Source: Polytrichum commune | Taxonomy: Eukaryota > Streptophyta > Polytrichopsida > Polytrichales > Polytrichaceae | Assembly (NCBI GenBank): GCA_950295325.1 | Contig: OX485807.1 | Location: forward strand, 44,174,440 to 44,238,439 | Reading direction: 5' to 3' | Length of the DNA: 64,000 nucleotides | Shown here: piece by piece, positions 12,893-63,976 of the stretch | Position numbering within the stretch: the first letter of the stretch is position 1 | Layout: every line of letters begins with the position of its first letter | Made by a program: the position numbers and the translations under genes | The notes under the pieces: model-generated | What the model was told of the DNA's origin: nothing | What the model saw: only the letters and a program-made list of their open reading frames with translations | The model's database searches: none

Positions 12893-15800
12893 ATGGCGAG
12901 AGAGACGCTAGTGGACGAAGACCTCGACAACATTTTCTATGGGGACGAGCCCGATGAACACATGCTTCCTCGGAAAAAGGTCAGATTTATGTTCCTTCGT
13001 AGTAATTTTTTTTTCGAAATTTTATATGAATTTTTGGTGCATGAAGTTGGAACCCAAATGAAAATGGGTTAAGTTAGTGGTTTGAGCTTTTGAAATGTGG
13101 AATTATTAACAATTTTGTCAAGGAATGACTTGCGAGGGTGGTGTCACAAGACTCTGAGATTTACTGGGGTTTAAGGTATGGGAAGTTGCTCAACGTATCA
13201 GACAAACTTTGAAGCTGATATGGATGACTTCATTCCATGTTAGTTGCTGCAATGCTGGTTGGCATTCTGAAAATGTGTAAAAATTTCAGACATTGTGAAC
13301 ATGCATCTTGTATTTAAAAAATGGATTAATTAATGTATGGAGGATTGAATGTAACTACTTATATGGAGCTAATAAGGGTGAAGATGAATTCTTAGAACGA
13401 GGAGCCTCGCAATAGATGAGTAAATTTTTGTGTAGAGGGGTTTTTGTTCATTTGGTCATTCATTGGGTTAGATGAGTAGCATTGCACAAGTAGTGAATTT
13501 TGATCCCTTCTGATTGCATGAAGTGGCATATAGAACCATTTTCTCATGCTCTTAAAATCTCTTCTGAACTGATTCTTGTGCTCTCAAAAACTCCCGTTGT
13601 AAACTCATTGACTCTCTCCATTCTTCACAAGCAATCAGAGCTCATCTGCCCTAAATTAATTGCTCAATTTGACTTGCCCCTGTGTAACTGATCTAAACCA
13701 ATGATATTATCTTTGGGTTGTTGTTGTACATCTTGAATTCATTAACTTAATTGTTGAAGCAAACCCTACAAAACATTCCATTGGATATTTGCAGGTGCCT
13801 AGCTCTTTTGATGCCCTTAAACGGTACTTATTTAGAGTCATGGACTTTCTACCAGTCACAAACAATCAAAGCTCATCTGTCCTAAATTAGTGCTTAAGTT
13901 GACTTGCCCGTTAGTAGCCAATCTAAACTCTCATCATTGTCTTGGGGTTGTTGTTGTACATTATGAATTCATTCACTTATGTTTGAAGCATAACCCTAAA
14001 AAATGTTGCTTCCTCTTAAAACCTCTTGTGTAGACTCATATACTCCCACAAAAAATTTGGAGGTCACCTGCCCTAAAGTAGTGCTCAAGTTGACTTAGAC
14101 CTTAGTAGCTAGTTCAAACTACTCACATCGTCTTTGGGTGGTTGTTGTACATCATGAATCCTTTCACTTATGTTTTGAAGCAAACTCTACAAAATGTTGC
14201 ATCCTCTTAAAAAATCTTTCAGACTCATAGACTCTGGACCAATCACAAAAAAATTAGATTGCATCTGCATTGAAGTAATGCTCAAGTTTGACTTGCCCCA
14301 CAGTAGCTCATTCAAACTACTGACATTTGTCTTTGGGTGGTTGGTGTTCTGCATCATTTACTTGTGCTTTGAAGTTAACCATATGAAAGCTGGCATTTCC
14401 TTAAAAACTCTTTTTGTAGACTCATAGACTCTCTACCGATCACAAAAAATAATCCAGAGCTCATCTGCCCTGAGTAGTGGTCAAGTTGATTTGTCCCTCA
14501 ATAGCTAATTCAAATCACTGACAGTGTCTTTGGGTTGTTGTTGTGCACCATGAACCCATTTACATTTGTATTTGTTTTTGTTCTTGAAGCAACCTTTATT
14601 AAAAAAAAATTTGCAGGTGCCTATGGGAGATTTGTACGAGGCATCAAGGGCAGGAGATATTGAACGCCTGCGTCTGTTGCTAGAGGAAGGGGCCAATGTG
14701 AACGCTCGGGATACATGGGACTCAGTCGCCCTTTACTATGCATGTTTGGCAGGCCACCTGGACGCAGCGCGGATTTTACTGGAGAGAGGGGCTATTTGCA
14801 GTGAGAACACATTTGACGGGGACCGGTGCCACTATGCCGCTTTAAATTTGCAAGTACGTAAGCTCTTGAAGGCTTTTGAGGCTCGGCCTCCTCCTCTTGA
14901 TCCTCTTCCACGCTCTTTTCGGGAGCTCTTTATCAGCTTTGGTGCCAATTGCAGGTACAACCCGATGATGACGTGAATATGTGCATCAATATGCTTGCTT
15001 ACTTACAGAGTCTTTGATTTGATAAGTGGGATGTGGGTGAGAAGTAGCTGCTTAGGTCGTGGGAGCTTTTATTGCAATTCCTTATGACATTAGAGTTGTC
15101 CAGTTCAATGGGACTTTGCGTTGGGAGTTGGTCCTCTATGATTTCCCATTGGTTATTTCTGCATACATATTCATTAAGTTTTTCCCACTTTAGTAGGTGC
15201 ATGCTTGGAGGTGGTGTTTGAATTTGACTGAAGAGCAACCTATTTTGGCTCATAGAGGCTAAATTCATTTTAGTATCCCAAAATGAGTTTGACCCTCAAT
15301 GAGCTGATCGAGAATATTCCCCATCCAGACCTCCAACACTACCTCTGACAAGTATACAGCAAACACTTCCCATACACGAAAGGTCTTCTATGCAAAACGA
15401 CAAACTCGTGACCAAAGTTCTGACGAGTTAAAGGACAACTCCATTAATGTTGATGCAGCAATTACTTTGATCTATAATGTAGCTTTGCTGTTCTTTTTGC
15501 AGGTACTTGGAAGGTATTGCCGACGAAGCAGATCAGGTGGACAATAAAGAACCATTTGTGAAGAATTATTCACATGATGCATTTAGTATTAATGATGGGG
15601 ACTCTGTTGGCCCCGATATCATCCTTTACGTCAGTGGAAGACCCATTGGAGCTCACCGTGCTGTTCTTGCAGCTAGGTGCCCATATTTTAAGAAAAAATT
15701 CGTAACAGAGTGGAAAGATCGGCATGAGGTTCGTCTTGCGAATCCAAAACTTACGTATCCCGCACTATTTAGCTTGGTGCATTTTTTCTACACAGACAGA

Positions 15801-18800
15801 TTGGATATTGCGGTGGACGACATGGAGGATTTGGTGCGTATCTGCAAGTTTTGTGGATGTTCTGAACTCCAAAAAGCCTTGGAAAAGGAGCTAGTCCACC
15901 AAAAGTATGCGGATTACAAGTCGATAAAAGGTATCGATGATTCACAGAAGAGGTTTATTCTACAAGGATCATGTTTGCCAGAATCGGAGCGGCTGTCTGG
16001 AGCACTGCGTGACCTTTTCATGCTGTCACTAAGAAATTCTGAAAACCGAAGAATTACTGACACTGTAGGTTGTGAAAATGAGGGAAATTCCTCCGAGACT
16101 ATTACAAAGTTAGAGGATGCGGCGAAAGATGCGCAGGTGAGAAAGTTATCTTGAGACGTGTTCTTGTTGTCCAAATTGGTTTGCCCCGGTCTTTACTTGA
16201 AGCTGCCATGGTGTTGTGAACCCTTGAAGATCCAAAAAGCCCATTCTGGGCCTCAAGGTGTCTTACGGGGTTTAGAGCCTACTTGATATATTTAGCTAAA
16301 TGTGCCAAAGTGACCCCATCTAAAATTATTTAATTCATCATTTGCATTAGTACAATGCAGCATGCATATATGTAAATTAAATTACAGAGAGATATGAACT
16401 CTTATTAGTGTCCTAGACTCAAATACATATCACATGTGTTTAGCTAATCACCATTGTCACATATGGCTTTTATTTTCACTTCCTCATTTTATCAGGTTGT
16501 ACTAAAATGTGGATTCAATATGCTAGACTAAATAAAATATCATCTCAATGCTTGGTTGGGGACTGGGGTTTGTACAAATTGTCACTCGGATAAACACAAC
16601 CCCCTGGTCCTTCAAGGGTTAATGCAAAGCTGCTAAAGTATTAGATTCATCTTACTTCGCTTGGTTAAATCTGTATCAGATACTTGAACTTTGACCCAAG
16701 GTCTTTCAGTTGCCCAATTCAATATGGGTTTGATGGCAATCAAATTGCTCAAACATTGTCCAAGGATCCAGTTAAACATTCTATAAACTAAGCACAATCT
16801 TCTGGCAATTGTTAAACATTTTGATTGCCTCCAAACCCATTTTTGATTTCATGCATGTGGGTGGTGTTCACCATGTGCATTTTAAATCAAACATTTCAAG
16901 CAATCAAATATCTAACATCCTTTTGTGAACTTGGGTCTCCTTTTGAGCAGGAGGATATCAAAGGTGACAACGTCGAAAGACTTGGAAGAGCTCTTGATGA
17001 ATGCTCCATCAGCAAGCAGAATGATGAGTTTTTTGAGGAAGATCATACAGATGTGTGCTTCTTAGTAGACAACAAGCAGTTCAGATGTCATCGATTTTTA
17101 TTGGGTGCTCGATCTGAATACTTGAAGGCTAGATTTTCGAGGACAACTGGATTTAGGGAAGGAGCGGGGAAAACAGAGGTCAATAAATCAGGCTCAAGGT
17201 CTTTGCTTGTGCTGCAAGAGCATGACTTGAGTGCTGGTGCCTTTGAGAAGGTTTTGGAATACATGTAAGCTGCAATCACATTGTTTTGCACATGCCACAA
17301 TTTGAAAAGAATTTGGGTTTAGGGTTTTGGCTCAAAGGTTGTGCATAAATGTGTAGTCCACAAATGACTTGGAGATCTTAAGTGTTGGTTCTCTTTGACA
17401 TTACATTTAATTGGTAATCTGGTATGATTGGTAGGCATATAGAAAATGTCCTAGGGTTCATCAAGATGTTTAGGTGGCTAACAATAAGCACTTGGGTGTC
17501 GTTGACCCCTAAGCATCTAAGAGGCCCAATCTGGGCTTCTCAATGCACCAAAAATGTAAAGTTTAGATGCATAATTGATCCATCTAAAATCCACTCATTC
17601 ATCAAGTGCACTTTTTAAATTGGTTGGATGCCTAAATGTGATTGAATATTGGGGTTCAAAGACATATCCTGGGTGTCCTTGGGTGCAAATATGTACTTTA
17701 TATTTTATCATCAATGTCACATGAGAATGTTCATATTTTCTCCATGATGTAAGATGATGTACTAAATGAAGTTTCAAACCCATAAGTATAGGACATGTGA
17801 CAAGTGAGGACTCGTAGAAATTGTGTGTATAGGTTGTACACTGAGCCCCTCAAGACCTTTAAGTTATTGATTACTCTGTCAATGGTTCTGGAGCTTTTTA
17901 AAAAAAAATTGTGAAGCATTTTATAATTTGTTGGAGTCTGTTGTGCAGATACACAGATGCAGTTAAGAATGTGGACCTTGATCAGGTGTGCCTAATGAAC
18001 TTCTTCATCTACAAGAGTTTTCTTTAGAAATGGTTTCAAATTTTGGAGTCCTTAGAGTTATCCTTCAATTCAATCAGAGTTTTTGTGGGGAGTTGGTTGC
18101 TTTGCATACATAACTTTCCATGTTCAGTAAGTTTGCGGTGCATGCTTGTAGTCGATCTGGAGGTTTGAATGAAGAACATTATATATTGGTTCACGGGGGG
18201 TCAAACTGATTTTAGCACCTCTTGGCATGCCAAAATGATATTGGCCCTCCATGAACTGTTATAGGAAGTTCTTTGTTCAAACCTCCAGACCGATGAAAAG
18301 CATGCACCAAAAACTTACCGAACATGGAAAGTTCTGGATGGAAAACAACCAACTCCCGACCAGAACTCTGGTTGATTTACAGGATAACTCCATTAGGCTG
18401 ATAAATTAGAGAAGGGTGTGTATGGCAGCATTGAATCCTAGTGTTCCCACATCTGAACCTATCAGATATACTTCCAAAATACAAATTGAAATTGAAATTT
18501 CTTGAGCCACATGGTGAGTGTGACATGTATGTGATGGCTTTGTTTGTGCAGGCTGAAGAAATATTTGATGCTGCTTCCAGATATCTTTTGTTTTCTTTAA
18601 AGCGTGCAGTGACAGATGCTCTCTTGCCACAACTGGAGACTGCCGCTCCGGCCGATCTATGTGGCTGGCTCCTTCTGGCTGATAAGTAAGTAATTGAAAT
18701 GACAATCGAAGTACACCAACTAGTCATATTATGTGGGGCACAGCAATTCTCTAACCCATGTTAATTTCCAGCCCATGCCAAATCTTCAGTTTACAGTTAG

Positions 18801-23200: not shown

Positions 23201-23619
23201 ATATTTAGTGTAGTAGCCGACAGGGATAGAACCTGGAAACTCTTAAAATAGTATTGATTGAGAATAGTGCCGAAATGGGTGCATCAGGAAGTGGAAACAA
23301 AGACTAGCTTCCAAGTACCTTATACTATCTTCAAGACCTAAGTAAACTACATCCAGGTCTGGTTCTACTTAGAGATTCAATCCTGGAAACAAATAAAGGT
23401 CAAACTACCACAAATTTTGGCAGCATCATGTGGCACCTCAATGTTCAGCTATAAGTTGGGTCTCATTTCAAAAGCTGCAGTAGTCCAGGTTTGCCTCCAC
23501 CCAAATCAATCGTTTTCTCCAGAACAACTTCCTTGGGTGTATCCTTTGTCCCAGCTGCAAATCACAATAACGTAGATGTATGTCAATCCAACATACATAG
23601 TGATAATGTGACAACTGCA

Positions 23620-24215: not shown

Positions 24216-26921
24216 TTATTTACATGGGAGGCTGGATCCAAGTTCACACTGACCTTGCAAAGGCCGGGGTTTCCGTCTTTCAAGTAAAATTGCTGGGCGG
24301 GGAATTATGCTTCCTGATGCTGCACCACCTGTTGAAATACGAACCTTTGTACCATCCTCTAAGTATCTGTATGTCACTCGACAGGGGGCCCTGCACCAAA
24401 ATAAACAAATACATAAATAAATAATTGAACTTCAGCAGACCTGTTGGAGAACAAGGTAGAAGCACCCAAATTTGTCAAGTTCCAGGTCTAACACCTATAT
24501 TTTGTCCCAGAGGGTGCAGCTATGTACTGCAAAATGAACCCTAATGGTATTAATCTAAAGACCAGAAACAAAGCCCACTTTAGATCGTGAGAAAACCTTG
24601 TCTTTCATATCTAAGTCACACGATATTGGGATGTCACAATATCCAGTGCATTAGCCACCTCATGGATTTGCTAATTTTTTATGATCTCCATGAACCTTTT
24701 TGAACATGAGACAAGTCTCCAGTGCTCAAGGTGTCTATTATTGGCGCTTCTACCTTAATACCCAGCAAGCCTATTGTCAGAACCCCAAGTAAGATGAAGA
24801 AACAAAGCACATAAGAAGGGAGCAAAATAAGGTGGAAAATATAGATCCGGACTCACCCATTCACAGGATCAACTAGCTGCACATTAGAAACATGCAGAGG
24901 AGCCTCCACGGTCACAATTCCTCCAGGATTTCCCTCTGTCCTCCTCAGATGCTTTTTAACCTGCCAGATACCAAATTCAGATCCTTTCAGTCCTTGCTCC
25001 ATCATCATGAATCCACAGAAGTAACTTCACAAGATAATTCTTGATAACCTTAATCCTCTTCCCTTACTATTGGATGCTGGTTCTTATCACCACCAACCTG
25101 TGGTTACAAATTGACGTGAGACCTAATGGACCTAGACTTCTCATCAGAGTTATCCTTTAACTTGATCAGACTATTCATCGGGAGTTGGCACCCTATTAAT
25201 ATTAATTTGCTTGTTTTGCATATGATATGAATAATTAATTTCCACTTGTGGTGTATGCTCAGAGGTAGTGTTTAAATTTGAATGAAAAGCAACCTGTTTC
25301 GGTTCATTTGAGCACCTCTTGGCATGCCAAATGAATTTGACCCTCTATGAACCAATAGAGAATGTCCTCTGTTCAAACCTCAACACCACCTCTGACAAGC
25401 ATGCACCGAAATTTACTGAACATGGAAGGCATTGGTATGCAAAAAAGGCAACTCCATACCAAAAGTGATGTTGAGTTGGAGGTTAACTCTATTGCACCAG
25501 AGGTTTAAGGGTTTATGTGAGATCTAGAGTGCCTATTGCAGCAGATGACAGCACTTAGCAGAACCCAATAAGAAATTGCAGCAGGATTCCTTCTCAAGCA
25601 GCACAAAACCTATTATACCTAAAGGGTTTAAGGGTATGTGATACCTAGAGTGCCTATTGCACCTACTGGGGTTTAAGGGTTTGTGAGTTTATGTGATGCC
25701 TAGAGTGCCTATTGCACCAGATGTCAGAGAATCCAGTCAGAAATGTAGCATGATTCCTTCTTCTCAATCAGCAGAAAACCTTTCCAAATTCTAATGTGTA
25801 TACAGGGTATAGCTTTTATAAGGTTTCTTCCTTCGACAATCACTGGACTTTGCACGTGGATGACCTCTGCACAGTGCCTAATAGAGCTAGAGTGCCTATT
25901 GCACCAAATATCTGAGAATCCAGTGACAAATCTAGCAGGATCCTTCTTTTCAATTACAAGAAAACGTTGCAAATCTATTTCTCTCTACAGGGTAGCAGTT
26001 CTTACAAGGTTTCTTCCTTCTAACATCACCTGATTTATGGAGCGGATGACCTTCTGCACAGTTCCTAATCGACCTAAAGCGTCTATTGCACCTAGAGGGT
26101 ATAAGGGTTTATGAGATTCTGTGATTCTGTGATTATGTGATACCTAGAACGCCTATTGCATCAGATGTCAGAGAATCGACTGAAAAAAGCAGCAGGATTC
26201 TTTCTCAATCAGCAGAAAATCCATTCAACCCAGAGGGTTTAAAGGTTTCAGGATTTAAGGATTTGAGTGATACCAAGTATGCCTACTGTACCAGATGTCA
26301 GAATTCCTAGTGAGAAATGTAGCAGGGTTTCCCCTTTCCAATCACCAGAAAACCTTGCCAAATCTTAATTCAAGTACGCAGGGTAGAAGCTCATACAAAT
26401 TTTCTTCCTTCTACAATCACTCAATTTTTTGCGCGGATGACCTTTTGCACAGTTCCTAATAGACCTAAAGTGCCTATTGCACCTAGATGGTTTGAGGGTT
26501 TAAGGGCTAAAGAGATTATGTGATACCTAGAGTGCCTATTACACCAAATATCAGAGGAACCAGTGAGAAATGTAGCAGGATTCCCTCTTCTCAATCACCA
26601 GAAAACCTTGCCATATTTTAATTTTATGTACGCAGGGTGGAAGCTCTTACAAGGTTTCTTCCTTCAACAATCACCCGATTTTTTGCGCGGATGACCTTCT
26701 GCACAGTTCCTGTTAGGCCGGCATCCTTGCCTGCCATCACCATCACCTGCACCCATTCTTCCCAAAATCAGGAGAGCACTGCGATACATTCGCATTGTCC
26801 ATTCCACTCCTCAACCCGAAGAGGTGAAAACTTAAAAACACGAACTGAAGAGTATCCATACCTTGTCGCCTCGAAGAATGCGCCATTGCTTGAACACCTG
26901 TTGCGCTGCTTTGTAACCCAT
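24216..26921 (-). CDS. KOW-domain ribosomal protein L24, mitochondrial type (At5g23535-like)
   Basis: Four short exons on the minus strand: 26862-26921, 26651-26746, 24857-24960 and 24216-24390, joined by GT-AG introns with matching phases into 144 aa. It starts [20 protein letters not shown]. Exon 2 holds the KOW loop and L24 core ([15 protein letters not shown] ... [10 protein letters not shown]). Exon 3 reads [20 protein letters not shown] and onward to VDPVNG. Exon 4 has [11 protein letters not shown] and [10 protein letters not shown], ending with TAA at 24216-24218. Family L24 proteins nucleate 50S assembly and line the exit tunnel. The short N-terminus without a long transit peptide and the GSIIPRP segment match the plant mitochondrial form more than the plastid one. 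The size is usual for the family. Introns 1 (104 bp) and 3 are ordinary. Intron 2 (1690 bp) contains a family C MITE and three decayed copies of exon 2. Confidence 0.92.
25143..25493. mobile_element. Family C foldback MITE, copy 3 (L24 intron 2)
   Basis: About 350 bp with arms CAGAGTTATCCTTTAACTTG and GAGTTGGAGGTTAACTCTATTG. The centre has GAATGAAAAGCAACC and GTTCAAACCTC. It starts about 175 bp beyond the exon-3 acceptor boundary, within intron 2. Confidence 0.8.
25500..26640 (-). repeat. Degenerate tandem array carrying copies of L24 exon 2
   Basis: Units of roughly 180-390 bp share 'gagtgcctattgcacc', 'gggtttaagggttta' and 'gaatccagtgagaaatgtag'. Three units contain a minus-strand copy of the 3' half of exon 2. 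At about 26388-26465 there is an in-frame TGA and a worn donor. At about 25995-26075 the frame is still open in register with exon 2 and the donor CTT-GTAAGA is intact. At about 25811-25887 there is a 1-nt deletion and the donor is lost. The 5' half of exon 2 is missing in all. Only the copy at 26651-26746 has the full acceptor and fits exon 1. Confidence 0.85.
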
Positions 26922-30729: not shown

Positions 30730-33700
30730 ATGATGGTGGCTATGGCGAGGGCCGCATCTGTGGTGGCACATTCTTCTTCAACCTCCTGTTTCGCACTGCA
30801 AGAGCCACGCACCTCTCAATCCTCGCTCCTGCGTGCCTCCTTTGCACCGTTGCGCAAAAAAACTCCTTCAATTTCTTCACTGAAAGCCTGTGCGCTACTC
30901 AGCTTGGCTTCATCGTCTTCGTGGCGGGGAAGTGTGCACCTCGGCCAGCTTCTTGCAGCCAGAACTGGTGTGTGTGTGTGTGGGTGGTTTAACAAAATAA
31001 TGTACAGTCAGTGTGGAATTTGAGAGATTCGGATCGTGAATCTTGATTATGCACACATCTGTATCATAGCGTCTTATCTATCCTGGGATTTCTGAGTTTT
31101 CGGTGGAAAATTCTTCCATACCCCACCCACCAGCTAGCTCTCCTTGGTTTTTGGTTATGGGTTCCCCTGTTTTCATGTGACCACCCATTTTCTGGGAATA
31201 AAATGAGAGAGAATGCTGTTTTATGAGTCTGTCTGTGAAATTTTTCAGGTGAGATTAATTGTGGTGTGGCTGCTTTTGGTTTAAGAGATTTTTGAGTATT
31301 TGGTGGAAATTAATCCTTCCATAACCCACCCACCAGTTAGCTCTCCTAGGTTTTTGGGGTTAAGGATTCCCCTGTTTTCATGTGACCACCCATTTGCTGG
31401 GAATAGAATGAGAGAGAATGCTGTTTCATGAGTCCGTCTGTGAATTATTTCAGGTGAGATTAATTGTGGTGTGGCTGCTTTTGGGTTAAGAGATTTTTGA
31501 GTATTTGGTGGAAATAAATCCTTCCATGACCAACCCACCAGCTAGCTCTCCTAGGTTTTTGGGGTTAGGGATTCCCCTGTTTTCATGTGACCACCCATTT
31601 TGCTGGGTTGCAAAAGGAATCTGTGGAATAGAATAAGAGATAATGCTGGTTTGTGAGTCCGCCTCTGAAAGGTTTCCGGTGAGATTAATTGTGATGTGGT
31701 TGCTTTTGGGTTTAGGGATTATTTGAGTGTTTGGTTGAAAACAATTGTCCCACAACCCACCCACCCACCAGCTACATAGCTCTTCCAGGTTTTTTGGGTT
31801 TATGGGTTCCCCTGTTTTCATGCAACCGGCGATCTGCTGGGATGCAAGGAACTTGTGGAATTTAATGAGAAAATGCTCTGTTGGTGAGATTGATTGTGGT
31901 TTGGTCGCTCTGGGTGAAGGTAATGCGAGGCAGGTGAAGAGGATTAAAGGAGTGAAGGCGTCATTGCTCGGAGTTGGGGCGCCAGAGGCTTTGGTCATTG
32001 GCGTTGTGGCTTTGCTTGTCTTTGGTCCCAAAGGCTTGGCCGAGGTATTTATTTCCTTCCTTTCTTCCTTCTCGGCATCCCTTGCTCAATTTTTTGTGCC
32101 TATCCTTGGTCCTCATGCCCTCTTGTCTACCTACCATTGCTTGCTTTATGACTCAATAATTCAGCTCACATGTGTGTGCATGGAAAATATGCGGTTCTGG
32201 GCATGGTCGGTGTGATGGGTTCCTATATTTTTGAATCAATGACATGGAGCTGAGTTTTTGGGTTCTTATATTCTTGAATCAAGTACATGAGCTGAATTTT
32301 GGGTTCTTGCATTATTGAATCAAGTACATGGAGCTGAATTTTGAGTTCTTACATTCTTGACTCAATTACATGGAGCTGCCTTCAGATAGTGAAGAGCAGA
32401 AGAGCCTATTGGCTTGGAAATCTTAGCCAACCACTTGCAACAGGAACGCGATGAATTACTGATAATTTTTTTGAAATGATTTGTGTTGCTGAAGCTCTGT
32501 ATCTATGTAGAACTGACTGGAAACTCTCTTTGCATACCTAGGATCAAAAGAAAAAGGTATAGATGTTGCGAGTAGAGAGATTTTTAAGTGCTTGTCAGTG
32601 GGTTACAGGTTGCTCGCACTTTGGGCAAGTCGTTGCGTTCTTTCCAACCAACAATCAAGGAGCTTCAGGTACTTCAAGATAACTTACCTGCAAATGTGCA
32701 GTCCTTGAACCTTGATGTCATTTTATAATAAGGCCAAATTCAGCTGACCATCTTCTTAGTTCTTAAGGACTCCAATCTTATCAAGCACTTTGCCTTGGGC
32801 AGTTCGGTTGTCTGATTTTTCTTAAACAAGGCCACAGTGTAGAAGTTCCTTACTGTTGAGAGTTTCCTCACTGGTCTTTGACAGCAAGTTTCAAGAGAAT
32901 TTAAGGCGACTCTTGAGCAAGAAATAGGTTTGGATGAGCTGCGAAACCCCACCTCATATGATTCACCCCCTACTTCAATGCCTGCCTCCACCTCCGAAGC
33001 AAAGGCACCTCCTGCACCTGCCAAGCAAGGTGCATTGCCAAGTTCTTTCATATCTTATGGAGCTTCTCAATTTTTAGAATCTGTTGACTTTTCGTCGGGA
33101 GTTGGTTCCCTACAATTTCTCATTGGTTGTTCTGCATACAATATAATAATTTCTCTCCACTTGCGGGTGCATGCTTGGAGGTAGTGTTTGAAGTTGAATG
33201 AAGAGCAACCTCATTCTGTTCATTGAGGGCCAAACTCATTTTAGCACCTCTTGGCATGAAAGTGAGTTTGACCCTCAATAAACTGATAAAGATGTTCTCC
33301 ATTCAAACCTCCACACTACCTCCAAGCATGCACCGAAGACTTACCGAACATGGAAGATGATGTATACAAAATAACCAACTCGTGACTTAAAGTCGTGTTG
33401 AGTTAGAGGAAAACTCTAATGTCTACTTCCTAATGGGGACTATTAAGAGGACCTCATTCAAAACCAATATGGTTACTTCTTTGATCAATTTTTTGTGAAC
33501 TGAATTCAGAGAGAATGTTTTGAGTCAGATATTTATGTACTTACTTCGCTGAAATTGAGTGTTGTTTTAATGAATGGTTGGATAGATGAGGCCCCAGTGC
33601 AACCCAAGCCATACACAACAGAAGACTATGTAAGGATCACAGAGGAGCAAGCTAAGGCTCTAGTTTCTGAGGAAGAACGCAAAGGTATGTATACCTCTTA

Positions 33701-36375: not shown

Positions 36376-37333
36376 ATCGAAGCAATGCACGGACAAGTTG
36401 CATGCGACAGGAATCATGGTTCATCATCTTATGGCGAGGATGATAGTACCACTGCTGCAGGTACTTCTACTTCCTCCTACTCCGGGACTTCCTTGTGACG
36501 CCAGTTTTTTTTGGCCACCTTCCGTATTTACTACCACTCTCAGTCCATTGTGGGCACTATTGACATAATTTATGAGCAAATCCAAGTATTCGGAGGGCGA
36601 CTCAACTCAATTCGAAGCTTAGCATCATAACTTATTAGGTAGGTGGATTGTTGATGATGATGGGTTTCGAGCATTTTTACATGCCGGGCTTACAACAATC
36701 TTGGAATTTCTAGAACCCTACCCTACCCCTCTGATCGGACTTACTCGTCGTATTGTTTGAATGGTTTGCGATCTGCTGCCTGAGATTGCAGAGATATTTT
36801 TTTGGGAGCGTGAAATACCATTCGATCATGGATGGGTTTAGGGTGGGTGTTTGAGGTTTTGGATCTGTGGGGTTATGTGGGTTGTGTCGGTACCTTTTCA
36901 AAAAGTAGGCTACTGTCGGCTTACTTGTTCAATTTTTTCTGCCAAATTTGAATTACACCTCGATTGCGCTTGCTTAATTACTCAAGTTGCATAATTCTTC
37001 TTCTTTCTCTTCCTCCTCCTTGGTTTGTAAGATGACGTTTTTCTGGTTTGATCTTCTCATGTTGGATCTTTGGGGACTGAGGTTATGTGTGTTGTGTCGG
37101 TACTTTTTTAGAAAGGCTACTCCCGGCATACCTTATTTCTTCAAAAAACTTTCTACCAGATTTGAAATACACCTCGATTTCACTTGCTTAACACTCAAGT
37201 TGCATTATCCTTCTTCTTCGTCTCTTCTTCTTCCGTGTGACTAAGGTCCAAATCGTATCTGATGTTCACCTCGGTTTGGAAGACGATGTTGTTGTGTTTT
37301 GCTTTTCTCATGTTGGGGTTATGTCACAGATCG
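36376..37333 (+). promoter_or_regulatory. Upstream region of the amylase gene with a ~235-bp tandem duplication
   Basis: Two related blocks lie at about 36865-37030 and 37080-37250. Both read 'gttgtgtcggtac', 'aggctact', 'tttgaa-tacacctcgatt', 'cacttgctta' and 'ctcaagttgcat', then a TTCTTCTTC pyrimidine stretch and a GTnnGTAAG/GTGACTAAGG end. Pyrimidine-rich tracts just upstream of plant start codons are common in leaders. This duplicated block may therefore hold alternative leader/promoter sequence. Confidence 0.6.
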
Positions 37334-40300
37334 ATGGCTTCATGTGTTATAACTTCACAGGCATCGGGAACGATCATAAAAGAAACGTTCCCCTCCTCCT
37401 GCTACACATCGTCCAACCATCACTCGGTGCGAGTGAAATGTGCTCCGAAATCAAGAGTGTCTCTATTTCCTTCACTCTCAGCTGCTACTACTTCTTCTTC
37501 TTCTTCCAGAAAGAGGAATTTGAGGAGTGTTATGAGAGTAGTGGGGGCTGCATCCGCTACCTCGGAAGCAGAGAATGTGCAGGCTGAAGAAGTTCTGGAG
37601 CAAGTAGGTGAATCACGGGGTGGCAACATCAAAGCTGACCCTCTCAGAATCATCTTGTTCCAGGTAAACAAACCTTATTTTTGTTGGGAATTTATCGCCG
37701 CTACTGCTGCTTTTGTCAGCAATTTCGTGTTTGCTGCAAGTGCTTAAGCTCCACTTCTTGTGACTGCTGGCTTAACCCTCTGGATCATCTTCTTGACGAC
37801 TACTGATATGTTTGTTAAGTGTTTCTCTATGTTATGTTTGTGGGTTTTCAATATTGGGAGCTGAATTCCCCGTCCAAGAATGATGACTACTGATATGTTT
37901 GTTACGTGTTTCTCTATGTTATGTTTGTGGGTTTTCAATATTGGGAGCTGAATTCCCCGTCCAAGAATGATGACTACTGATATGTTTGTTACGTGTTTCT
38001 CTATGTTATGTTTGTGGGTTTTCAATATTGGGAGCTGAATTCCCCGTCCAAGAATGATGACTACTGATATGTTTGTTACGTGTTTCTCTATGTTATGTTT
38101 GTGGGTTTTCAATATTGGGAGCTGAATTCCCCGTCCAAGAATGGAACTGGAGCAGTGAGAATTTATCAGGCGTGTGATTGTTGTCATCAATTTGGTGTTT
38201 GCTGTCATTGTTGATTGCAACAAATACTTGAGCTCTAATTCTTCTGATCGTCTTCTTGATGACTAATGTTATGTTTTCTAAGTCTTTTTCTCCATGTTGT
38301 GTTTGTGGGTTTCCAATGTTATGAACGGAATTCCCGTCTGAGAATGGAGCTGAACAAATTCGCATTTGCTATCACTATTGATTGCAATAAATAGTTGAGC
38401 TTAAACCCCCTGGGTTAACTTTGTGACGAGTACTAATATTATGTTTCGTAGTCTTTTCTCCATGTTATGTTTGTGGGTTTTCAATGTTGGAATGGAATTA
38501 CCCGTCTGAGAATGGATCTGGAGCAGGGCGTGGGATTGCATGAAACTCAAGATTCTTTGTTATTTTATTGATAAACTTCAATGTAAGATGGTGTTTTGAT
38601 TATCTATGGGCTTAAAGTAGGAACTCATATTGGCCGCTACTGCTTTTGTCAACAATTTCGCATTTTCTGTTACTGTTGATTGCAACAAATACTTGAGCTC
38701 TACTTCTTCTGACTGCTGACTTGACCGTCTGGATCATCGTCTTGATGACTACTGATATTATGTTTTCTAAAGTCTTTTTCTCCATGTTATGGTTGTGAGT
38801 TTTCAATGTTGGGAACTGAATTTCCCGTCTGGGATTGGCCCTGGACCAGTGGCCTGGAGTTGCATGAAACTTGAGATTCTTTTATCTTTGTTCATTTTTG
38901 ATAACTTTAGTGTAAGATGATAATGTTGTGAATTTATCTATGGGTAAAAATTAGGGATTCAATTGGGAGTCGTGGAGAAGCCCCTCCTGGTATGATGAGC
39001 TAGGACAAGTTGCTGAGGATCTCGCTGACTCGGGATTCACTGACGTCTGGTTTCCACCATCCACGCATTCTGTGGCTCCTCAAGGTAAATAACAATTTTC
39101 TGCTACCCTGAATTTCACTGGTATATATGTCACTTTTGTGGAGAGACCAAATTGACTTCAGAGGAGGCTCTTTGTTTCATCCTCTTCTCATGATCTCTTT
39201 CACATGCAATTTCAAAAGCAGACAATGGGTTGGTAAACATGCGACTGTAAATACATCACTGCTAGTCAGGTATGTGGTCCTATTGTTGGCACTTCCAGCT
39301 CCACAGATGATTTTGGCTGTTGAATTTAATCGGAAATTGTCTCATCCAGTTGGCAATTGAGAAGTCGTGCAGATTGTCATGTCATGTCATGTCATGTAGT
39401 AGTCAGGCAATGGCAGGGTCATCTGTCATTTTGGGTGTTAATGTGCCTCGTATCCAATCATGAATAGACATGTCACCAAATCACGTTGCATAGCTTGATC
39501 ACTATGCGGCCTGAATTTCAATTTCTGCAGGATACATGCCGGGACGACTATACGACTTGAATGCATCACAATATGGAGACGAGACAAAGTTGAAAGAGGT
39601 GATTGACAAATTCCATGGGCTCAGAGTGCGATGCATTGCTGATATAGTCATCAACCACCGATGCGGAGAATTCCAAGATGAGCGTGGCGTGTGGTGCATT
39701 TTTGAGGGTGGAACGCCCGATGAGCGCCTTGATTGGGGTCCATGGGCCATTACGAGTGATGACTATGAGTACACGGACGGGTCTGGAAATCCCGACACAG
39801 GAGCCGATTTTGGAGCTGCCCCAGATATCGATCACACAAACGAGCGCGTCCAACGGGAGCTCAGCAGCTGGATGCTGTGGCTAAAAACCGACATTGGCTT
39901 CGACGGGTGGCGGTTTGATTTTGCAAAGGGCTATGCGGGGTACTACGTTGGGATGTACTGCAAGAACACCATGCCCGAATTTGCAGTTGGTGAGGTGTGG
40001 AACAGCCTCAATTACAGTTTTGGGCAATTGGATTTCAACCAAGATGGTCACCGGCAAGATTTGGTGAACTGGGTGCATGCAACGGATGGCATTGCGACGG
40101 CTTTTGATTTTACAACCAAGGGCATTTTACAAGAAGCTGTGAACTTTCAGTATTGGAGGCTGAAGGATGCAAGGGGTCGGCCACCCGGGATGATTGGGTT
40201 TTGGCCAGAGAAGGCGGTTACGTTTATCGATAACCACGACACTGGTTCGACGCAACGGGAATGGCCGTTCCCTTCCGACAAAGTGATGCAAGGCTATGCA

Positions 40301-41196
40301 TATATTTTGACTCACCCTGGCACCCCATGTGTGGTAAGTTCAGCTCCCTGCCTCCTGCATGACCTGTAGGTTTTCCTGTCTCAAGGTATGTGGGCCTTAT
40401 GTGGTCACTCTTCTTAATTGGACACCTACAATTGAGTGTATAGTGGTATATGGCAAGCCGTGTAGTTAAGAATGGACATTAAAAATAGATGACTGGACTA
40501 TGAGCTCAAAATTTATACACCATTCTAGTTTCAATTGTGAACACCACAGGAGGAGAATCTTCACTTTGACCTACTGTAACTACTGCATCTCAACTCCGTT
40601 TCTGAAACTTGAAATGAGAATCTACATGATTTGCAATTGCTAACTGGATGAAATAATTCCCGAGCTGATCCAACAACCATAAATGTATGTGGAGTTGGAA
40701 CCGCCCACAATAGGGCCACACACCTTAATAATTGTAAAGATGTTGTATGTTTTTCTCTTCTGTGTATTAATGCTACCATCTGTTGGCATGTTGACCAAAT
40801 TAGACTCTGCTCAAGCCGACTTGGTCTAATGATAAGTCTGAAATTCCTATCTCCAGAACCTGTTACGTGAGTTTATTTTTGTTTCTTCCACCATCACTCA
40901 TGTGCTTCACTTCCATGTGCATATTGCAGTTCTATGACCATTATTACATTTGGAAGCTAAAGGTGGAAATCAGAGCACTCCTGGAGACCCGAAAGCGCAA
41001 TGACATCAAAGCCAATAGCAAATGTACAATTCTGGCTGCTGAGCATGACTTCTACATGGCATCTATAGAGGATGGGCAAGTATTGGTAAAACTTGGTCCC
41101 CGCTTTGACATTGGGGAGCTTGCACCCAGTTTAGAAAAGTATGATATAGCAGCCTTTGGGATCAACTACTGTGTTTGGGAGAGGAAGAAAACCTAA
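37334..41196 (+). CDS. Alpha-amylase, GH13, with predicted plastid-targeting extension
   Basis: Four exons: 37334-37663, 38955-39084, 39531-40333 and 40930-41196; phases agree, 509 aa. Residues 1 to about 100 are Ser/Thr/Arg-rich with few acids early, like a chloroplast transit peptide. The catalytic barrel starts at RIILFQ|GFNWESW. Conserved regions are visible: [22 protein letters not shown] (nucleophile Asp about 283), AVGEVW (acid Glu about 308) and FIDNHDTGS (Asp about 390). FYDHYY and the C-terminal beta domain end with VWERKKT. The segment [13 protein letters not shown] with [16 protein letters not shown] matches the AMY1/AMY2 type more than plastid AMY3, and the CBM45 modules of AMY3 are missing. 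It hydrolyses alpha-1,4 glucan, in this case perhaps plastid starch. A start at 37262 in the same frame is possible but adds a hydrophobic, non-transit-like stretch. Confidence 0.93.
37798..38145 (+). repeat. 87-bp minisatellite, four near-identical units (amylase intron 1)
   Basis: Units start GACTACTGATATG at 37798, 37885, 37972 and 38059, an exact 87-bp period. Identity is almost complete, so expansion is recent. Since 87 is a multiple of three, the minus strand reads as a 29-residue protein repeat, which I regard as incidental because the array sits in an intron. Confidence 0.95.
38146..38954 (+). repeat. Older, diverged units and an acceptor-flank copy (amylase intron 1)
   Basis: Diverged copies of the 87-bp core recur near 38262-38350, 38430-38520 and 38755-38840 within larger units ('gcttttgtcaacaatttcgca', 'gattgcaacaaatacttgagc'). 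The segment before the exon-2 acceptor ('tttatctatgggtaaaaattag|ggattcaattgg') has a copy at about 38600-38632 ('ttatctatgggcttaaagtag|gaactcatattgg'), giving an acceptor-like AG at 38620. Confidence 0.75.
39267..39400 (+). repeat. Family B MITE fragment and GTCAT microsatellite (amylase intron 2)
   Basis: 'caggtatgtggtcctattg', 'cacttccagctccaca' and 'agaagtcgtgcagattgtca' match the left part of family B as at 55911. It breaks off at (GTCAT)4 near 39377-39396. Confidence 0.6.
40383..40729. mobile_element. Family B MITE, copy 2 (amylase intron 3)
   Basis: Left edge AAGGTATGTGGGCC and right edge GGGCCACACACCTTAA; 347 bp. The interior resembles copy 1 over its full length. It starts 50 bp after the exon-3 donor. 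Confidence 0.85.
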
Positions 41197-41876
41197 AAGG
41201 CCAACTCTTTCTTTGAATTTTTTCATATTCTGGGGCCAAGAATTGTTTCCTCAAAATAAGCTTGCTACTGTAATTACCAGCAACCATATCCTCTACATTA
41301 CATACACACCGTCAGGGTAGGTGAAATGGGAAAATTATTATGACTCGTTCCCTAAACCTATGAAATTGGTCATGTGATTCTTACATGAGCTTCCCTATAT
41401 AGGTATTGCATTGGTTTGTATGCCCAAGCGTCACTTTGGTATAGAAACACGATACTCTCCAGTCTCTAAATGAGACATTCAACAAACACATGGTGTGGTG
41501 AGGACATCACTTGCAATCCGTTATCAAGGTGTGTGTGCCCACACTATCTGCATAGTTTGTGCAAGCTACACCATTTTGTAGCAGATTTTTTGATGTTAGT
41601 AAAGTATAAGCTGGGATATATGAAATGCAATCATATGGAAGGCTGGTTTCTCTTTTGCTGATCATTCATTTTGTAAGACGGTAATGGAGATATCACAACA
41701 TTTGTGTAGTGATGGAAATTGAGGATTTGGATGGTCTATATTTATTCATATACTCTTTAGACTGGTTGATTTTTCAACATATGAGTCAAGATGTGATATT
41801 CCGTCTGTTTCACATTCTTGTTGGTCTAGGATTGTTGATGAGCAAACGAGATTCCACACAAGTTGAATGTCATTGT
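41197..41876. other. 3' flank of the amylase gene
   Basis: The 3' UTR and spacer; no gene is seen. Short frames at 41470-41661 and 41709-41972 lack any domain. Confidence 0.5.
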
Positions 41877-42179
41877 AAGGTATGTGGCCCTAATGTGGGC
41901 ACTTCCAAGTCCACTGACAATTTGGCCGTCGGATCAGATTGGGGATTGGAGAATTATAAGAGAGTTATCTGAAATATTCTCTCCCTAAGTGATTGCATAG
42001 GCATTCCCAATTGTATTAACTATGAAACCCAGATTGGTTGATATATAGTGTGCATGTAGTTGAATCTCAACACAACACGTGTCTTTTGGTGTCTGTTTTT
42101 GACAAACAAGCCTTGCTATATACCTCTCAAATACAGGTGTCAATTAAGAAGAGTGATCATATAAGGCCCACATACCTTA
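41877..42179. mobile_element. Family B MITE, copy 3
   Basis: Left edge AAGGTATGTGGCCCTAATG and right edge ATAAGGCCCACATACCTTA; about 303 bp. The terminal inverted repeats are the clearest in the family. Confidence 0.85.
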
Positions 42180-42391
42180 GTGAATGTAATTACTTTCAGA
42201 TCTCTTGTGCTCTAAAAGCATACATTGTTATAAAGACACCCGGGTGATATACCATGAAGGAGTCCAATTCAGCCGTAATTATCTGCGCTGATTATCCATA
42301 ATGGTGTCAACAATTTGCACACATATTGCTTGCATGATCAGCACTGTCCTTATCAACAGAACTATTCCCAATAGAAAGACCACATACATAT

Positions 42392-42983
42392 TAAGGTAGA
42401 CAACCCTTATTATATTACTTTTCTTATTAGGACACTTATATTTGAGTGGTGTGTGGTTAGGTGTGGCTCCAAGAACAAATACTAGAAAGACATGTGTTTA
42501 AAGAGATTTGACTATATGCTCAAAATATGATAACCAATAATGTTCAATAATCAACACTTTGGGGGGGGGGGGGGGGGGGGCTATACAATATGACCATTTG
42601 ATGAGCACAAGAATTTTCACTTTGATAATGGAATGAAGTAGAGTTTAAAGTCTAGGAAGCCATAAGGCTTATGGGACTAGAAATATATCAAGATGTTGAC
42701 AAAAGATTGATTCTCTAGAGTAATGGAGTGCAGTGGCCTTAGTAAGATACATGTTGATATCAACTTCATGGACCAATTGGAAGAAAGACTTGAGACTACC
42801 TAGTACTACGTTCTGAAACACGACGAACAAGATAATTCATGTGAGCTCCAAAAATTATGAAGAAAGTGGCTACGGCCTCAGTTTGGATTTGTGAACCATC
42901 TCGTACTACTCGCGTGATTCATATCCCTAGGAGAAGTAGGCTAGTGGGAAATAGTAACCATTTAAGGCCCATCTACCTTGTGC
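42392..42983 (+). mobile_element. Family A MITE, copy 3, with ~200-bp insertion and G20 tract
   Basis: Left edge TTAAGGTAGACAACCC and right edge GGCCCATCTACCTTG. The family sequence is interrupted at about 42637-42835 by unrelated sequence. A run of 20 G at 42561-42580 replaces the short G tract seen at the same place in other copies ('attgggaggg', 'ttggggggagc'). Confidence 0.75.
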
Positions 42984-44148
42984 GAAGGTCACCATTTCCA
43001 AATGTTTTGACCTAACATCCTCTTCTGATTGGAGACGAAGAGATCATGAGCCAAAACCCAACTGATAGAATTGGCAAATGAGTGGGTTGAGTTTCGAGAA
43101 GGCCAGCGAAGCGCATCTGCCACCAACCTACTACGAAACAGCAACGCTGATGCCATTAATATGAGCTTTGATTACAGACGGTACTCCCCTCCAGGACAGG
43201 CTTTCATGAGTGTCGCAGCGTACACCTTACAATTTATTGCCACTGGGGTAGGAAAAACATCACCACCATGATTGTCGCCTGCCTCCTCGCCTGTCAGATG
43301 TGATGAAATATTTGCTCAATTTATACAAATACTTGGCAACAATGGAGCTGGCGACAGACTTACCTTACGGCCTTTAAATGCTCAACATGCTCTTGGAAGA
43401 AGCTGTTTCTCTTGATTTTCCTTCCCTCCGTTAGATGCTTGCCACACAACCATTCTTCTACAAGGAACTCAAGCAAAGTGATTATTGTGTTTCCACACAC
43501 CATTCGTGACAAAGTAGATTTCTTTTCGAGAAGAATAGATTAATAACAGTGGATGCTGATTCTCGTCAACACGCCCATCATCATCTTCGTGTAAGCTTGT
43601 AGAGATGAAATGGCGAACATGGCAGCAGCAGCAGCGCAGTATCTGCACAGAATATGTGCAGGTGCTAATCCCTAATTAACCCCAAACCAGCTATTCCATC
43701 ATTGCAAGATAGATTGATTCGTAAGTTCCACTGGCGATGATTTTATTCACATCAAAGTTCATTTGTACAAGGGTAACTCGTCAAAAACACTGAAAGCTCC
43801 GGTTCAGGAATCTCATGTAGCTTACACATGAATCTGAAGCTCTTGGATCCCCAAATAGAGAGTTCTCAATCCAAGCAGAGAGAACTTGCAATGGAAACTG
43901 GAATTTAAAAGGCCAGCTTATACTCTGTTTTGAGCATCCACATCTTTGTGGCCACTCGCGCAGAAGCAGGAAACTGGTAAACCCGGTGTAAGACTATCCT
44001 CCGACCAACAAGCAGTTGAGGATGGAGAACAGATCATCGAGATCTGCTCTCTCTCACGACCAGTACCAACTCTGATCTATGTGTAACAATTGTGCGTAAA
44101 TTTGGTGGAAGCTGATCGCCTCTTGAGAATTTTGATAGGTTTAAGCTA
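42984..44148. other. Spacer and 3' flank of the BAHD gene
   Basis: The minus-strand BAHD gene ends at 44149, so its 3' UTR lies in the right part. A plus-strand frame of 66 codons at 43071-43271 has an even amino-acid mix (it contains RSASATNLLRNSNADAIN) but matches nothing I know. A short GCAGCAGCAGCAGCG run is at about 43623-43637. Confidence 0.4.
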
Positions 44149-47100
44149 CTACTCTTTCAGGGATTCGGTGAACTTAGCCATGGCAGTAGCACTGGGTAAT
44201 CCAAGTAAGACATTCACACTTCTCCTATCCTTCCCGCAGGAAGTAAACAGCACCACTTCCTTATCCGGTGGGGTAGCCGGGCTCATGCACAATGGCTGTC
44301 CCCACCCAAAGTTTACAGTATGGAAGGGAAGCCGGATCCATGTGGTGACAAGCAAAGTGGCAACAAGTGCAGGTCGAGTGCGAGTTGCCTCGAAGAAATC
44401 CACCGCAGATCGCATGTACTCATCCGTGATTACGGCTATGGCCTCTTGCACAAGCTTGACAGCATATGAGATCGGCTTCTCAGAGAGTTCCCCTGCTGTT
44501 GCAATTGCACATGTAAGCACGATGCCATTCCCCATGAAGTACTTGGGGAGAGGTGGAGAAAACCTTGGTCGGCCATCTACTGCGAACAGCAATCTGCTCA
44601 TCTGAGCAGGTGGCATGTCTAGTGCGAGTGTGCGAGCTCGCCATGTCGCAGCTGTCAATGCTTCGAATGTGGACACCTTGCTAACTGTGCCGTCCTCGAG
44701 GATCCGTGCCTTTAGGCTTTCCAGCTCCAGGGGGGTTAAAGTGATGGAGCTGAAGATGAGTTTGTCGCCCATCAGAAGCTCCTTGTTCGCAGACAGGTCT
44801 TCGATCTCGTCGAACTCGTGGTGTGGGAAGTCTATTCGAGGTGGCTGTCGAGCTTGGAGGACTGTGCGGTCGATGTGTGGGCAGTTTGTGATGTCTAGAC
44901 CTCGAGCTAGCTCCCCCCATGCCAGAACGAATTCGTTGGCGGAGAGACCGTCCATCATGCAGTGATTGTTGTTTATACCGATCACGAAGCCTCCGCACTT
45001 GAATGTGGTCACCTGTGAATTTTTAGATTACCAAATCCCGGAGTCAGTCAGGTAGATCTTCGGTCGATTTTCTAAGCTCCACTCTCATTGTCAAAACTCT
45101 CCGCTCAGACAATGAGACCGTCAAAACGGATGAGCACAGAGCTCCAATGCAGGGTTGAAATCGAATACGTGCCATTGCTGTAAATGATGTGCTGCCTCGC
45201 CGAGCACGGTTACGCTAATGGCAGAGTTTAAGCAATCTGTTTGACCTGTATGTATGACCAGGACATGGCTACAGCTCATACGAAATTCTAGCAAATCTAG
45301 GAGTTAGATCAGCTTCAAGAACATATGCATCTTCGATGCGAAGTTTGCGAATATAATTCACAAACTCCGGAGTCAGCTGTTCGGTCGATTTTCGAAGCAC
45401 TTCGTCCACTTTGATTGTCTAAAATCGCCGCTCAGATAATAAGACCAGATGTCAAAACGCATGTACACACAGATTCCAGAGGAGTTTCCTCTAAAAAGCA
45501 GTGAGGAAATCAAACACATGCCCTTGCTGCGAACAACGTGCTACTCTAATGGAAGAGGTAAAGCAACATGTTTGGCCGCAGAAAAACGCATCATCTGATG
45601 TTGGAATTCTAGGAGGATTGGATTCAAGAAACGAGTCCACCTTCTGTCCAAGATTTCGTGCTAGTGTTTATACACGACTAAGCGCAAAATACATAAGCAC
45701 TAGACGCAGAAGTGAGCTGAGCTGCCAGAGCTTCTCCCCTGAAGTGCGTTCACACAATCGTGCAATGCACGCCTGCTGCGAATAGCATAAATGTGGTGGA
45801 GAAAGGGAGACATCTATCACCAACACGCGACCACGGTAATGGCAGAGGTTAGGAAACTCCGGAGGCAGCTATTCGGTCAATTTCCTGAACTCATCATCCA
45901 ATAATATGGTCAAAATTCGCTGCTCAGTCAATAGCACTATGTGCACTAAAATGGATGAGCACAGAGCTGCCAGATGATTTCCACCTGAAATGCAGCGATT
46001 AAATCAATTGAGTGCCATTGCTGCGATTGACATCCTGCCCGAATGGACACGGTACTTACGCTAATGGCAGAGGTAAAGCAATGTGTTACTTCAGCTCGGG
46101 TTGATGTATTTTTCATCGCAGAATGCATCAATTCGTGCAGAACTGAGCTGCCATAGAGTAATTTCTCCTACTTTGAATAACATTGTGGAGAGAAAAGGAA
46201 ACATCGACCATCGGGGAACATGCGATAATGCAGAGGCTAAGAAAATGTTGTTTCCTGCACAATCAATGGCGACACTTCCAGACAATGACACTCTGTTAAA
46301 ATCGACAAGCACAGAGTTGCCAGAGGATTTTCCCCTGAAATTCAGCGATGCAATCGAATGCATGTCATTTCTCCGTATAACATGCTGCCTCACCGAACAC
46401 GGTACTTACGCTAATGGCAGAGATTAAAAAAAAATTACTTACGCTAGGGTTGATACATTAGATAGAACTAAGCTGCCATAGAGAAATACCTCCTGTTGCA
46501 AATTACACTATGGTAGGGAAAGGGGAACCTCGATCATCGAAGAAACATCATGACGACGATAACAGTAGAGGTCAGGGAAAATTTCTCTCTTCTACCTGCA
46601 CATCCATGGCGGCATTTCCAGGATGTTTTTTTGGATTCGGAAACATCAGACAATGACGCCATGTGTAAAATGAATGAGCTGCAGGTACGACATCAAATGA
46701 GTTGCTGTTGCTGCGAATGATATGCTGCCTCACCGGAGACGCCACTTACACTAATGGCAGAAGCCAAGCAGTATGTTACTTACACTAGGGTTAATACATT
46801 GCTGCGGCTAACATTGTAGTACAAAAAAGGAAACATCGATCACCAATCATTTTACCTGCACAATCAGTGGCGGCACTTCCAGGATGTTTTTTGCATCAGG
46901 AACATCATAGACCAACTGCCGCATGAACGGTGCCGGCCTCGACAGCTCCCCAAGCTCCGCAATGAAGTGGTCCGCCACAGCCACAACAAATAATGCACCT
47001 TGTTCCTGGCAGTCGACCTGCAGCTTGTAATCCGCACTTAAGATCAACCTCCCCGCTAGCGGGTAGAAGTGCACTAGCAGCTTCGCCAGCGACTTTCTTA

Positions 47101-54809: not shown

Positions 54810-63976
<9,167 letters not shown>

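What the first reader, a model, noticed from the sequence alone, without database searches (positions are those of the whole stretch)
12980..46855. Five of six interrupted genes carry an intron array that copies a neighbouring exon edge
Seen directly in the ankyrin-BTB intron 1 (acceptor copy at about 13794), L24 intron 2 (exon-2 and donor copies), HCF106 intron 1 (units of the acceptor-proximal flank), amylase intron 1 (acceptor-flank copy at 38620) and BAHD intron 1 (exon-end and donor copies at about 46251-46283 and 46591-46650). Unit lengths differ (87, ~196, ~204, ~250-390, ~330-510 bp) and sequences are unrelated, so this is not one transposon. The shared theme is local tandem duplication that overlaps a splice junction. 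Inference: a lineage-wide process (replication slippage or template switching near exon edges) that lengthens introns and seeds decoy splice sites.
Basis: partly seen in the sequence, partly recalled or inferred. Interest (0 to 1): 0.85.

Follow-up and report, generated by a model that had tools for sequence, protein, structure and literature searches.

The report
Introns lengthened by copying exon edges
In this genome, short stretches of DNA have been copied head-to-tail inside introns, sometimes carrying a scrap of the neighbouring exon and its splice site along; it happened separately in several genes, but no more often at exon edges than random placement would give.

Summary
All five intron arrays exist. 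Three clearly carry a copy of an adjoining exon edge (Ank-BTB acceptor, L24 donor, BAHD donor). Amylase reaches the acceptor with weak exon support. HCF106 shows no exon-edge copy.

They are not one transposon: own-genome searches find no other full copy of any of the five, only partial copies for three.

I sampled 29 further loci from four gene families in the same genome. The conserved BAHD intron carries mutually unrelated arrays in 8 of 11 other genes, four of them reaching or crossing the acceptor. One duplicates 32 nt of exon 1, the whole ~135-bp ancestral intron and ~21 nt of exon 2. One ALDH gene copies ~46 nt of its exon-1 end with the donor.

A preference for exon edges is not supported: 9 of 19 arrays cross an edge; uniform placement predicts 9.8. 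Arrays also occur in 200 kb of adjoining and random DNA (20 arrays). They are dense in BAHD introns and rare in chaperonin introns.

Most likely: recurrent local tandem duplication with units about as long as the original introns, tolerated because splicing joins the outermost sites (inferred; no RNA data). A recurrent variant of a known mutation class.

The parts
12980..14616 (+). Ank-BTB intron 1 (AAAAAG|GTCAGA ... TTTGCAG|GTGCCT)
   Evidence: sequence; length 1637; ankyrin and BTB exons
13581..14572 (+). Tandem array, about five diverged ~205-bp units, Ank-BTB intron 1
   Evidence: only the own locus found in the genome
13788..13801 (+). Copy of the Ank-BTB acceptor and first 7 nt of exon 2 (TTTGCAG|GTGCCTA); AG kept
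   Evidence: 0 of 100 shuffles
24961..26650 (-). L24 intron 2 (1690 bp)
25502..26719 (-). L24 array; units carry about 60 nt of the exon-2 tail plus donor. Inner exon-end copies at 26397 and 26006 (GT kept) and 25820 (GT lost)
   Evidence: only the own locus found
31085..31888 (+). HCF106 intron 1 array, about four ~205-bp units; two units hold TTTTTCAG|GTGAG (GT at 31249) and TTTCAG|GTGAG (GT at 31454)
   Evidence: partial copies elsewhere
32216..32378 (+). Second HCF106 array, 42 bp x 3.9, intron 2
37697..38966 (+). Amylase intron 1 array: 87 bp x 4 at 99% (37794-38143) nested in older units about 300-465 bp apart; alignment reaches 12 nt into exon 2
   Evidence: edge test not significant
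38614..38633 (+). Copy of the amylase acceptor flank (AAAGTAG|GAACTCATATTGG); AG kept, exon part weak
45013..46855 (-). BAHD intron 1 (1843 bp)
45059..46907 (-). BAHD array, about five to six diverged units; begins about 50 nt inside exon 1
46590..46648 (-). Copy of exon-1 tail plus donor of BAHD (GTGCAG|GTAGAA)
   Evidence: score 59, 0 of 100 shuffles
46251..46281 (-). Second BAHD exon-1 tail copy; donor lost (CAG|GAAACA)

Best explanation
Segments of roughly 90-390 bp are repeatedly duplicated head to tail at many places along genes and elsewhere in this genome. The ancestral introns were about as long as the segments, so many duplications carry one or both exon edges. If the outermost donor is joined to the outermost acceptor the mRNA is unchanged, so the duplicate is kept as extra intron and the inner edge decays as a decoy. 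Longer exon pieces are probably removed by selection, since the kept exon overlaps are short. The DNA step (slippage, template switching or end joining) is not resolved. Shown: the arrays, the edge copies, unrelated arrays in different genes, and crossing at the rate that uniform placement predicts. Inferred: which splice sites are used, selection against long exon overlaps, and the DNA-level step.
For: Own-genome DNA searches return only the own locus for Ank and L24 and partial matches for the other three. BAHD: 8 of 11 fetched introns carry arrays; the 12 BAHD introns (window included), compared with each other, match only between L030 and L031, outside their arrays. Edge copies: L028, L033 and L035 clear (0 of 100 shuffles), L027 a 5-nt overlap in register (3 of 100). 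L033 duplicates exon-1 tail, whole intron and exon-2 head; its inner donor reads CT instead of GT. L047 (ALDH) copies about 46 nt of exon-1 tail. Null model: 9 of 19 crossing against 9.77 expected (P of 9 or more 0.76); outside the window 5 of 13 against 6.01. Exon overlaps are short against unit length: KS p = 0.0001 for nine cases, 0.019 for the five outside the window. Copy identities range from about 66% to 99%, so duplications are of different ages.
Against: No RNA data: splice-site use is inferred from coding continuity. Null-model inputs were entered by hand from diverged alignments. If only exon overlaps up to 50 nt could survive, 9 of 19 exceeds the 5.7 expected (P = 0.040; 7 strict cases P = 0.29; 13 outside the window P = 0.13), and the earlier version with 17 arrays gave P = 0.014 (outside the window 0.047). 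Uniform duplication does not explain why BAHD introns hold so many more arrays than chaperonin introns.
Confidence: 0.75

Rival explanations
1. An exon-edge-directed process: breakpoints are favoured at splice junctions, for example through the short CAGGT shared by donor and acceptor, or by transcription- or splicing-linked DNA damage.
For: Exon overlaps are short (5 to about 100 nt) relative to units. Several non-crossing arrays end within about 25-45 bp of an exon edge: L030, L031, L032, HCF106. With a 50-nt tolerance the excess is nominal: P = 0.040 with 19 arrays, 0.014 with the first 17.
Against: No excess under uniform placement (9 of 19 against 9.8) or under a 110-nt tolerance (7.7 expected, P = 0.32). 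Selection against long exon overlaps would give the same short overlaps. Arrays also lie in adjoining and random DNA.
Confidence: 0.12
2. The arrays are degraded tandem transposons or satellites inserted into introns.
For: Three of five arrays have partial matches elsewhere in the genome.
Against: Those I read look like copies of gene pieces: L005 holds HCF106 exon 1, L001 the BAHD exon-1 end. Arrays of different BAHD genes are unrelated, and units contain host exon edges.
Confidence: 0.03
3. Intron gain or exon duplication: inner copies are used as extra exons or separate introns, as in potato RdRp.
For: Inner copies often keep splice dinucleotides: 4 of 8 donor copies keep GT, 5 of 7 acceptor copies keep AG (one lost, one shifted), counted by eye. 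L24 units keep an AG before and two of three a GT after a ~59-nt exon piece.
Against: Copies carry indels and lost sites: L033 inner donor CT, L035 exon copy with indels. The recognised domain is complete in the outer exons of the window BAHD gene. Without RNA this is not decisive.
Confidence: 0.1

Closest known systems
Potato RdRp tandem duplication across an intron-exon boundary (PMC4974935; abstract, introduction, and results and discussion read)
   Same: A local tandem duplication carries intron end, acceptor and exon start; the duplicated edge supplies splice signals.
   Different: There a new intron was gained and shown by RNA reads. Here existing introns appear lengthened, often serially, and no RNA evidence was available.
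Internal gene duplication with whole introns (Gao & Lynch 2009; Arabidopsis TOUCH3), known here only as cited in PMC4974935
   Same: L033 duplicates a whole intron with exon on both sides.
   Different: In L033 the inner exon pieces appear to have been absorbed into one longer intron instead of giving two introns.
[quoted passage not shown]
   Same: Duplication of a segment containing AG|GT.
   Different: Source segments here contain an existing intron edge, not exon alone; no intron gain was shown.
Stwintronisation by donor duplication in Lipomyces (PMC7138796; search passages read)
   Same: A duplicated donor lies within an existing intron.
   Different: 4-7 nt duplications proposed there; about 90-390 bp here; no stepwise splicing shown here.

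Membership tests
Tandem genomic duplication crossing an exon-intron boundary | Head-to-tail copies in which one copy contains intron plus adjoining exon sequence | tested here: met
   Ank-BTB, L24, BAHD, L028, L033, L035, L047
Tandem genomic duplication crossing an exon-intron boundary | Local origin, no dispersed source element | tested here: met
   Own-genome searches with the five window arrays: own locus only for two, partial copies for three. The arrays of the sampled loci were not searched against the genome
Intron gain by tandem duplication | The intron itself is new, absent from relatives | tested here: not met
   BAHD only: exon 2 begins at model position 132-137 in all 12 genes with two exon matches, while arrays differ between genes, so the intron predates the arrays; the exon-1 match ends at 138-140 in 6 of 12 and earlier (108-122) in 6. 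No relatives' genomes were available for the other genes
Intron gain by tandem duplication | RNA evidence of splicing at duplicated sites | not testable with these tools
   no transcript data
Introner or transposon-made intron sequence | Same element in many introns | tested here: not met
   introns of 12 BAHD genes compared; only L030 and L031 share short stretches, outside their arrays
Recursive splicing sites | Pyrimidine tract plus CAG|GT, used stepwise | tested here: inconclusive
   sequence form present in HCF106 units and at copied acceptors of Ank-BTB, L027 and L028; use not testable. The definition is recalled

The most novel reading that the evidence does not exclude
Where the downstream exon begins with GT (CAG|GT), a duplicated acceptor is also a zero-length exon: splicing to the decoy regenerates a donor that can be spliced again to the true acceptor. 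Such duplications would be self-correcting, so introns with CAG|GT acceptors (as in the BAHD genes) could collect arrays freely and grow through built-in recursive splicing sites. HCF106 units carry near-ideal TTTTTCAG|GTGAG sites.
Probability: 0.12. Interest if true: 0.8.

Novelty: new variant of a known kind. Interest (0 to 1): 0.5.

Why it matters
It gives a concrete, countable route by which introns lengthen without transposons, and natural series of decaying decoy splice sites beside real ones. The BAHD intron, with unrelated arrays in most of the genes examined, is a ready replicate experiment for asking when a duplicated splice junction is tolerated. It also warns that an apparent preference for exon edges can be simple geometry.

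Tried and rejected
Gene calling by codon usage in the 200 kb sample found few genes; Pfam on five of those ORFs named one (GIDE/RING, L009), so intronic and spacer arrays in that sample could not be separated. Alpha-amylase family search: 7 exon matches, no orthologous intron set followed. Naming the species from papers: nothing relevant among 8 listed. Paper searches on duplication and introns (7 of 7 listed, 15 of 64,812, 12 of 19, 4 of 4, 10 of 20, 12 of 48): no listed title or abstract start describes recurrent arrays of exon-edge copies; only PMC4974935 and PMC7138796 were opened, so absence from print is not shown.

Considered and rejected: one transposon; exon-edge targeting as a necessary explanation. 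Selection disabling decoys: too few copies to tell from decay. A link of unit size to nucleosome spacing was thought of but not tested.

Limits of the counts. Peroxidase: of 150 matches listed I took the first six genes in rank order with an exon match ending near 147-149 and a following one from 144, left out the longest gap (2044 bp) for the letter limit, and fetched five with only about 15 nt of exon at each end; L052 and L053 look nearly identical. CCT: of 56 matches nine multi-exon genes were fetched; two further multi-match places (C2:31311706-31315251, C2:44917245-44917963) were left out. CCT and ALDH gaps lie between HMM matches and may hide small exons; the BAHD gap of L037 contains one, and that of L035 may, so its intron length is an upper estimate. 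The edge test covered 15 introns, 30 edges (L24 failed there and was done); HCF106, L037, L042, L054 and L055 were not edge-tested. The donor edges of L027 and L036 were each reached by 1 of 100 shuffles and not pursued. L036's two arrays count separately. Exon overlaps used (7, 58, 15, 45, 5, 10, 32, 100, 47 nt) were first readings; rereading gives about 7, 60, 12, 50, 5, 10, 32, 95, 46.
Full report
WHAT WAS CHECKED. Tandem Repeats Finder and self-BLAST find the five reported arrays and a 42-bp array in HCF106 intron 2; self-BLAST adds direct repeats at 36868-37237 and 48908-49100. Pfam confirms ankyrin, BTB, TatA/B/E, amylase and BAHD exons, an ABC transporter piece and a PPR-DYW gene. L24 was identified from translated exons on the minus strand and recall.

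EXON-EDGE COPIES IN THE WINDOW. I aligned up to 40 nt (70 for L24) of each adjoining exon with 6 nt of intron to the intron interior and to 100-200 interiors shuffled in 2-base blocks. Clear: Ank-BTB acceptor (score 26, 0 of 100), BAHD donor (59, 0 of 100), L24 donor (102, 0 of 200). Weak: amylase acceptor (42 of 100 shuffles reach it), although the array alignment runs 12 nt into exon 2. A weak resemblance of the amylase exon-1 end inside the array (score 23, 0 of 100, shuffled maximum 21) was not pursued. HCF106 intron 1: no exon-edge copy shown (by eye).

NOT ONE TRANSPOSON. Own-genome DNA searches return only the own locus for the Ank and L24 arrays. The other three give partial matches. 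The pieces I read look like copies of gene parts in unrelated surroundings: L001 holds the BAHD exon-1 end and the first array units including a remnant of the exon copy, so that duplication is older than the fragment; L005 holds HCF106 exon 1 with unit 1; L002 and L003 hold intron pieces. L004 and L006 were only aligned.

THE SAME THING IN OTHER GENES. Family searches located exon pairs for ALDH, BAHD, Cpn60/TCP1 and peroxidase. BAHD, 11 genes besides the window's: 8 of 11 introns carry tandem arrays, including 7 of 7 gaps of at least 900 bp. These introns and the window's, compared with each other, match only between L030 and L031, outside their arrays. L033: 188-bp unit made of the last 32 nt of exon 1, the entire ~135-bp ancestral intron and 21 nt of exon 2; the inner donor reads CAG|CTAATT instead of CAG|GTAATT. 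L028 copies 10 nt of exon 2 with the acceptor, L035 about 95 nt of exon 2, L027 5 nt (the L027 edge alone is reached by 3 of 100 shuffles). L030, L031, L032 and L036 have arrays that do not cross. L029, L034 and L037 have none. ALDH: 1 of 4 genes (L047), copying about 46 nt of exon-1 tail and the donor. Chaperonins: 1 of 9 genes (L042), not crossing by its coordinates. Peroxidases: 2 of 5 fetched introns (L054, L055), the two longer than 1 kb, not crossing by coordinates.

IS THE EXON EDGE SPECIAL? For each of 19 arrays (six in the window, nine BAHD, one ALDH, one CCT, two peroxidase) I entered intron length, unit length and extra length by hand, reconstructed the ancestral intron length, and computed the chance that a uniformly placed segment overlapping the intron crosses an edge. 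Expected 9.77; observed 9 with the two weak cases (amylase, L027), 7 without them. P of 9 or more is 0.76; P of 7 or fewer is 0.098. Outside the window 5 of 13 against 6.01. With exon overlaps capped at 110 nt the expectation is 7.7 (P = 0.32). With a 50-nt cap it is 5.7: 9 would be a nominal excess (P = 0.040), 7 would not (P = 0.29), and outside the window 5 against 3.1 gives P = 0.13. The first version with 17 arrays, before the peroxidases, gave 8.79 expected against 9 observed with no cap, and P = 0.014 (outside the window 0.047) with the 50-nt cap. Exon overlaps are shorter than uniform (KS p = 0.0001, n = 9; 0.019, n = 5 outside the window). Selection against long exon pieces, my looking inside introns only, or edge targeting could each cause that.

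WHERE ARRAYS OCCUR. With one fixed criterion: 20 arrays (5.3% of bases) in 200 kb of adjoining and random DNA (0.10 per kb), 9 in 11.9 kb of BAHD gaps (0.76 per kb), 2 in 29.3 kb of chaperonin plus ALDH gaps (0.07 per kb). BAHD against background: rate ratio 7.6, p = 2e-5; chaperonin plus ALDH against background 0.68, p = 1.0; the three sets pooled 2.7, p = 0.014 (the later peroxidase introns are not in these tests). For gaps of at least 900 bp, 8 of 8 BAHD (window included) against 1 of 12 chaperonin/ALDH, Fisher p = 7e-5. So presence depends on gene family, which the duplication model alone does not explain. Gene content of the 200 kb was only roughly called, so some of its arrays may be intronic.

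MECHANISM. Best reading: recurrent local duplication of segments about as long as the original introns, retained when outermost-to-outermost splicing keeps the mRNA intact. Two of the youngest intron arrays (amylase 87 bp x 4 at 99%; L030 96 bp x 6 at 97-98%) span almost whole numbers of units (350 and 576 bp), so junction microhomology there is at most about 2 bp. Whether slippage, template switching or end joining made them is open. Decoys: 4 of 8 inner donor copies keep GT; 5 of 7 inner acceptor copies keep AG, one is lost, one shifted; too few to tell decay from selection.

RELATION TO KNOWN WORK. Tandem duplications that cross an intron-exon boundary are known: the potato RdRp case (PMC4974935; abstract, introduction, and results and discussion read), which also cites whole-intron duplications in TOUCH3 and by Gao & Lynch (not read here). 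Donor duplication inside an intron is proposed for Lipomyces stwintrons (PMC7138796, passages). What differs here is serial lengthening of existing introns and independent recurrence in most examined genes that share one conserved intron. Searches listed no paper on that pattern, as far as the listed titles and abstract starts show; four of the six lists were partial.

Noticed in passing
L003-L006 (C2:47.216-47.230 Mb, C2:66.632 Mb, C1:17.551 Mb): Separate partial copies of HCF106 exon 1 or intron 1 at other places, three of them within about 10 kb on C2, near other duplicated sequence (453 bp at 96% in L003); looks like gene-fragment capture by a mobile element.
   Followed up: partly
window 31249 and 31454: HCF106 array units contain TTTTTCAG|GTGAG and TTTCAG|GTGAG, the form of recursive splicing sites.
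   Followed up: no
C2:55342450-55343450 and C2:55354300-55356250 (L033, L032): Two similar BAHD genes about 12 kb apart carry unrelated arrays in the same intron, so these arrays arose after the gene duplication or were remade since.
   Followed up: partly
L054 (C1:19635785-19636910): A peroxidase intron of about 1.1 kb is mostly a complex nested tandem array (129-1058).
   Followed up: no
C2:23.12-23.37 Mb: Eight closely similar peroxidase first-exon matches on both strands within about 250 kb, several with identical scores: a recent gene cluster.
   Followed up: no
window 18053-18390, 33086-33422, 58487-58782, 60300-60608 and others: Dispersed short repeat families, some palindromic (MITE-like), sit in other introns and spacers of the window, a second route of intron lengthening.
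   Followed up: no
window 36868-37237: A direct repeat of about 160 bp at 210-bp spacing lies just upstream of the likely amylase coding start.
   Followed up: no
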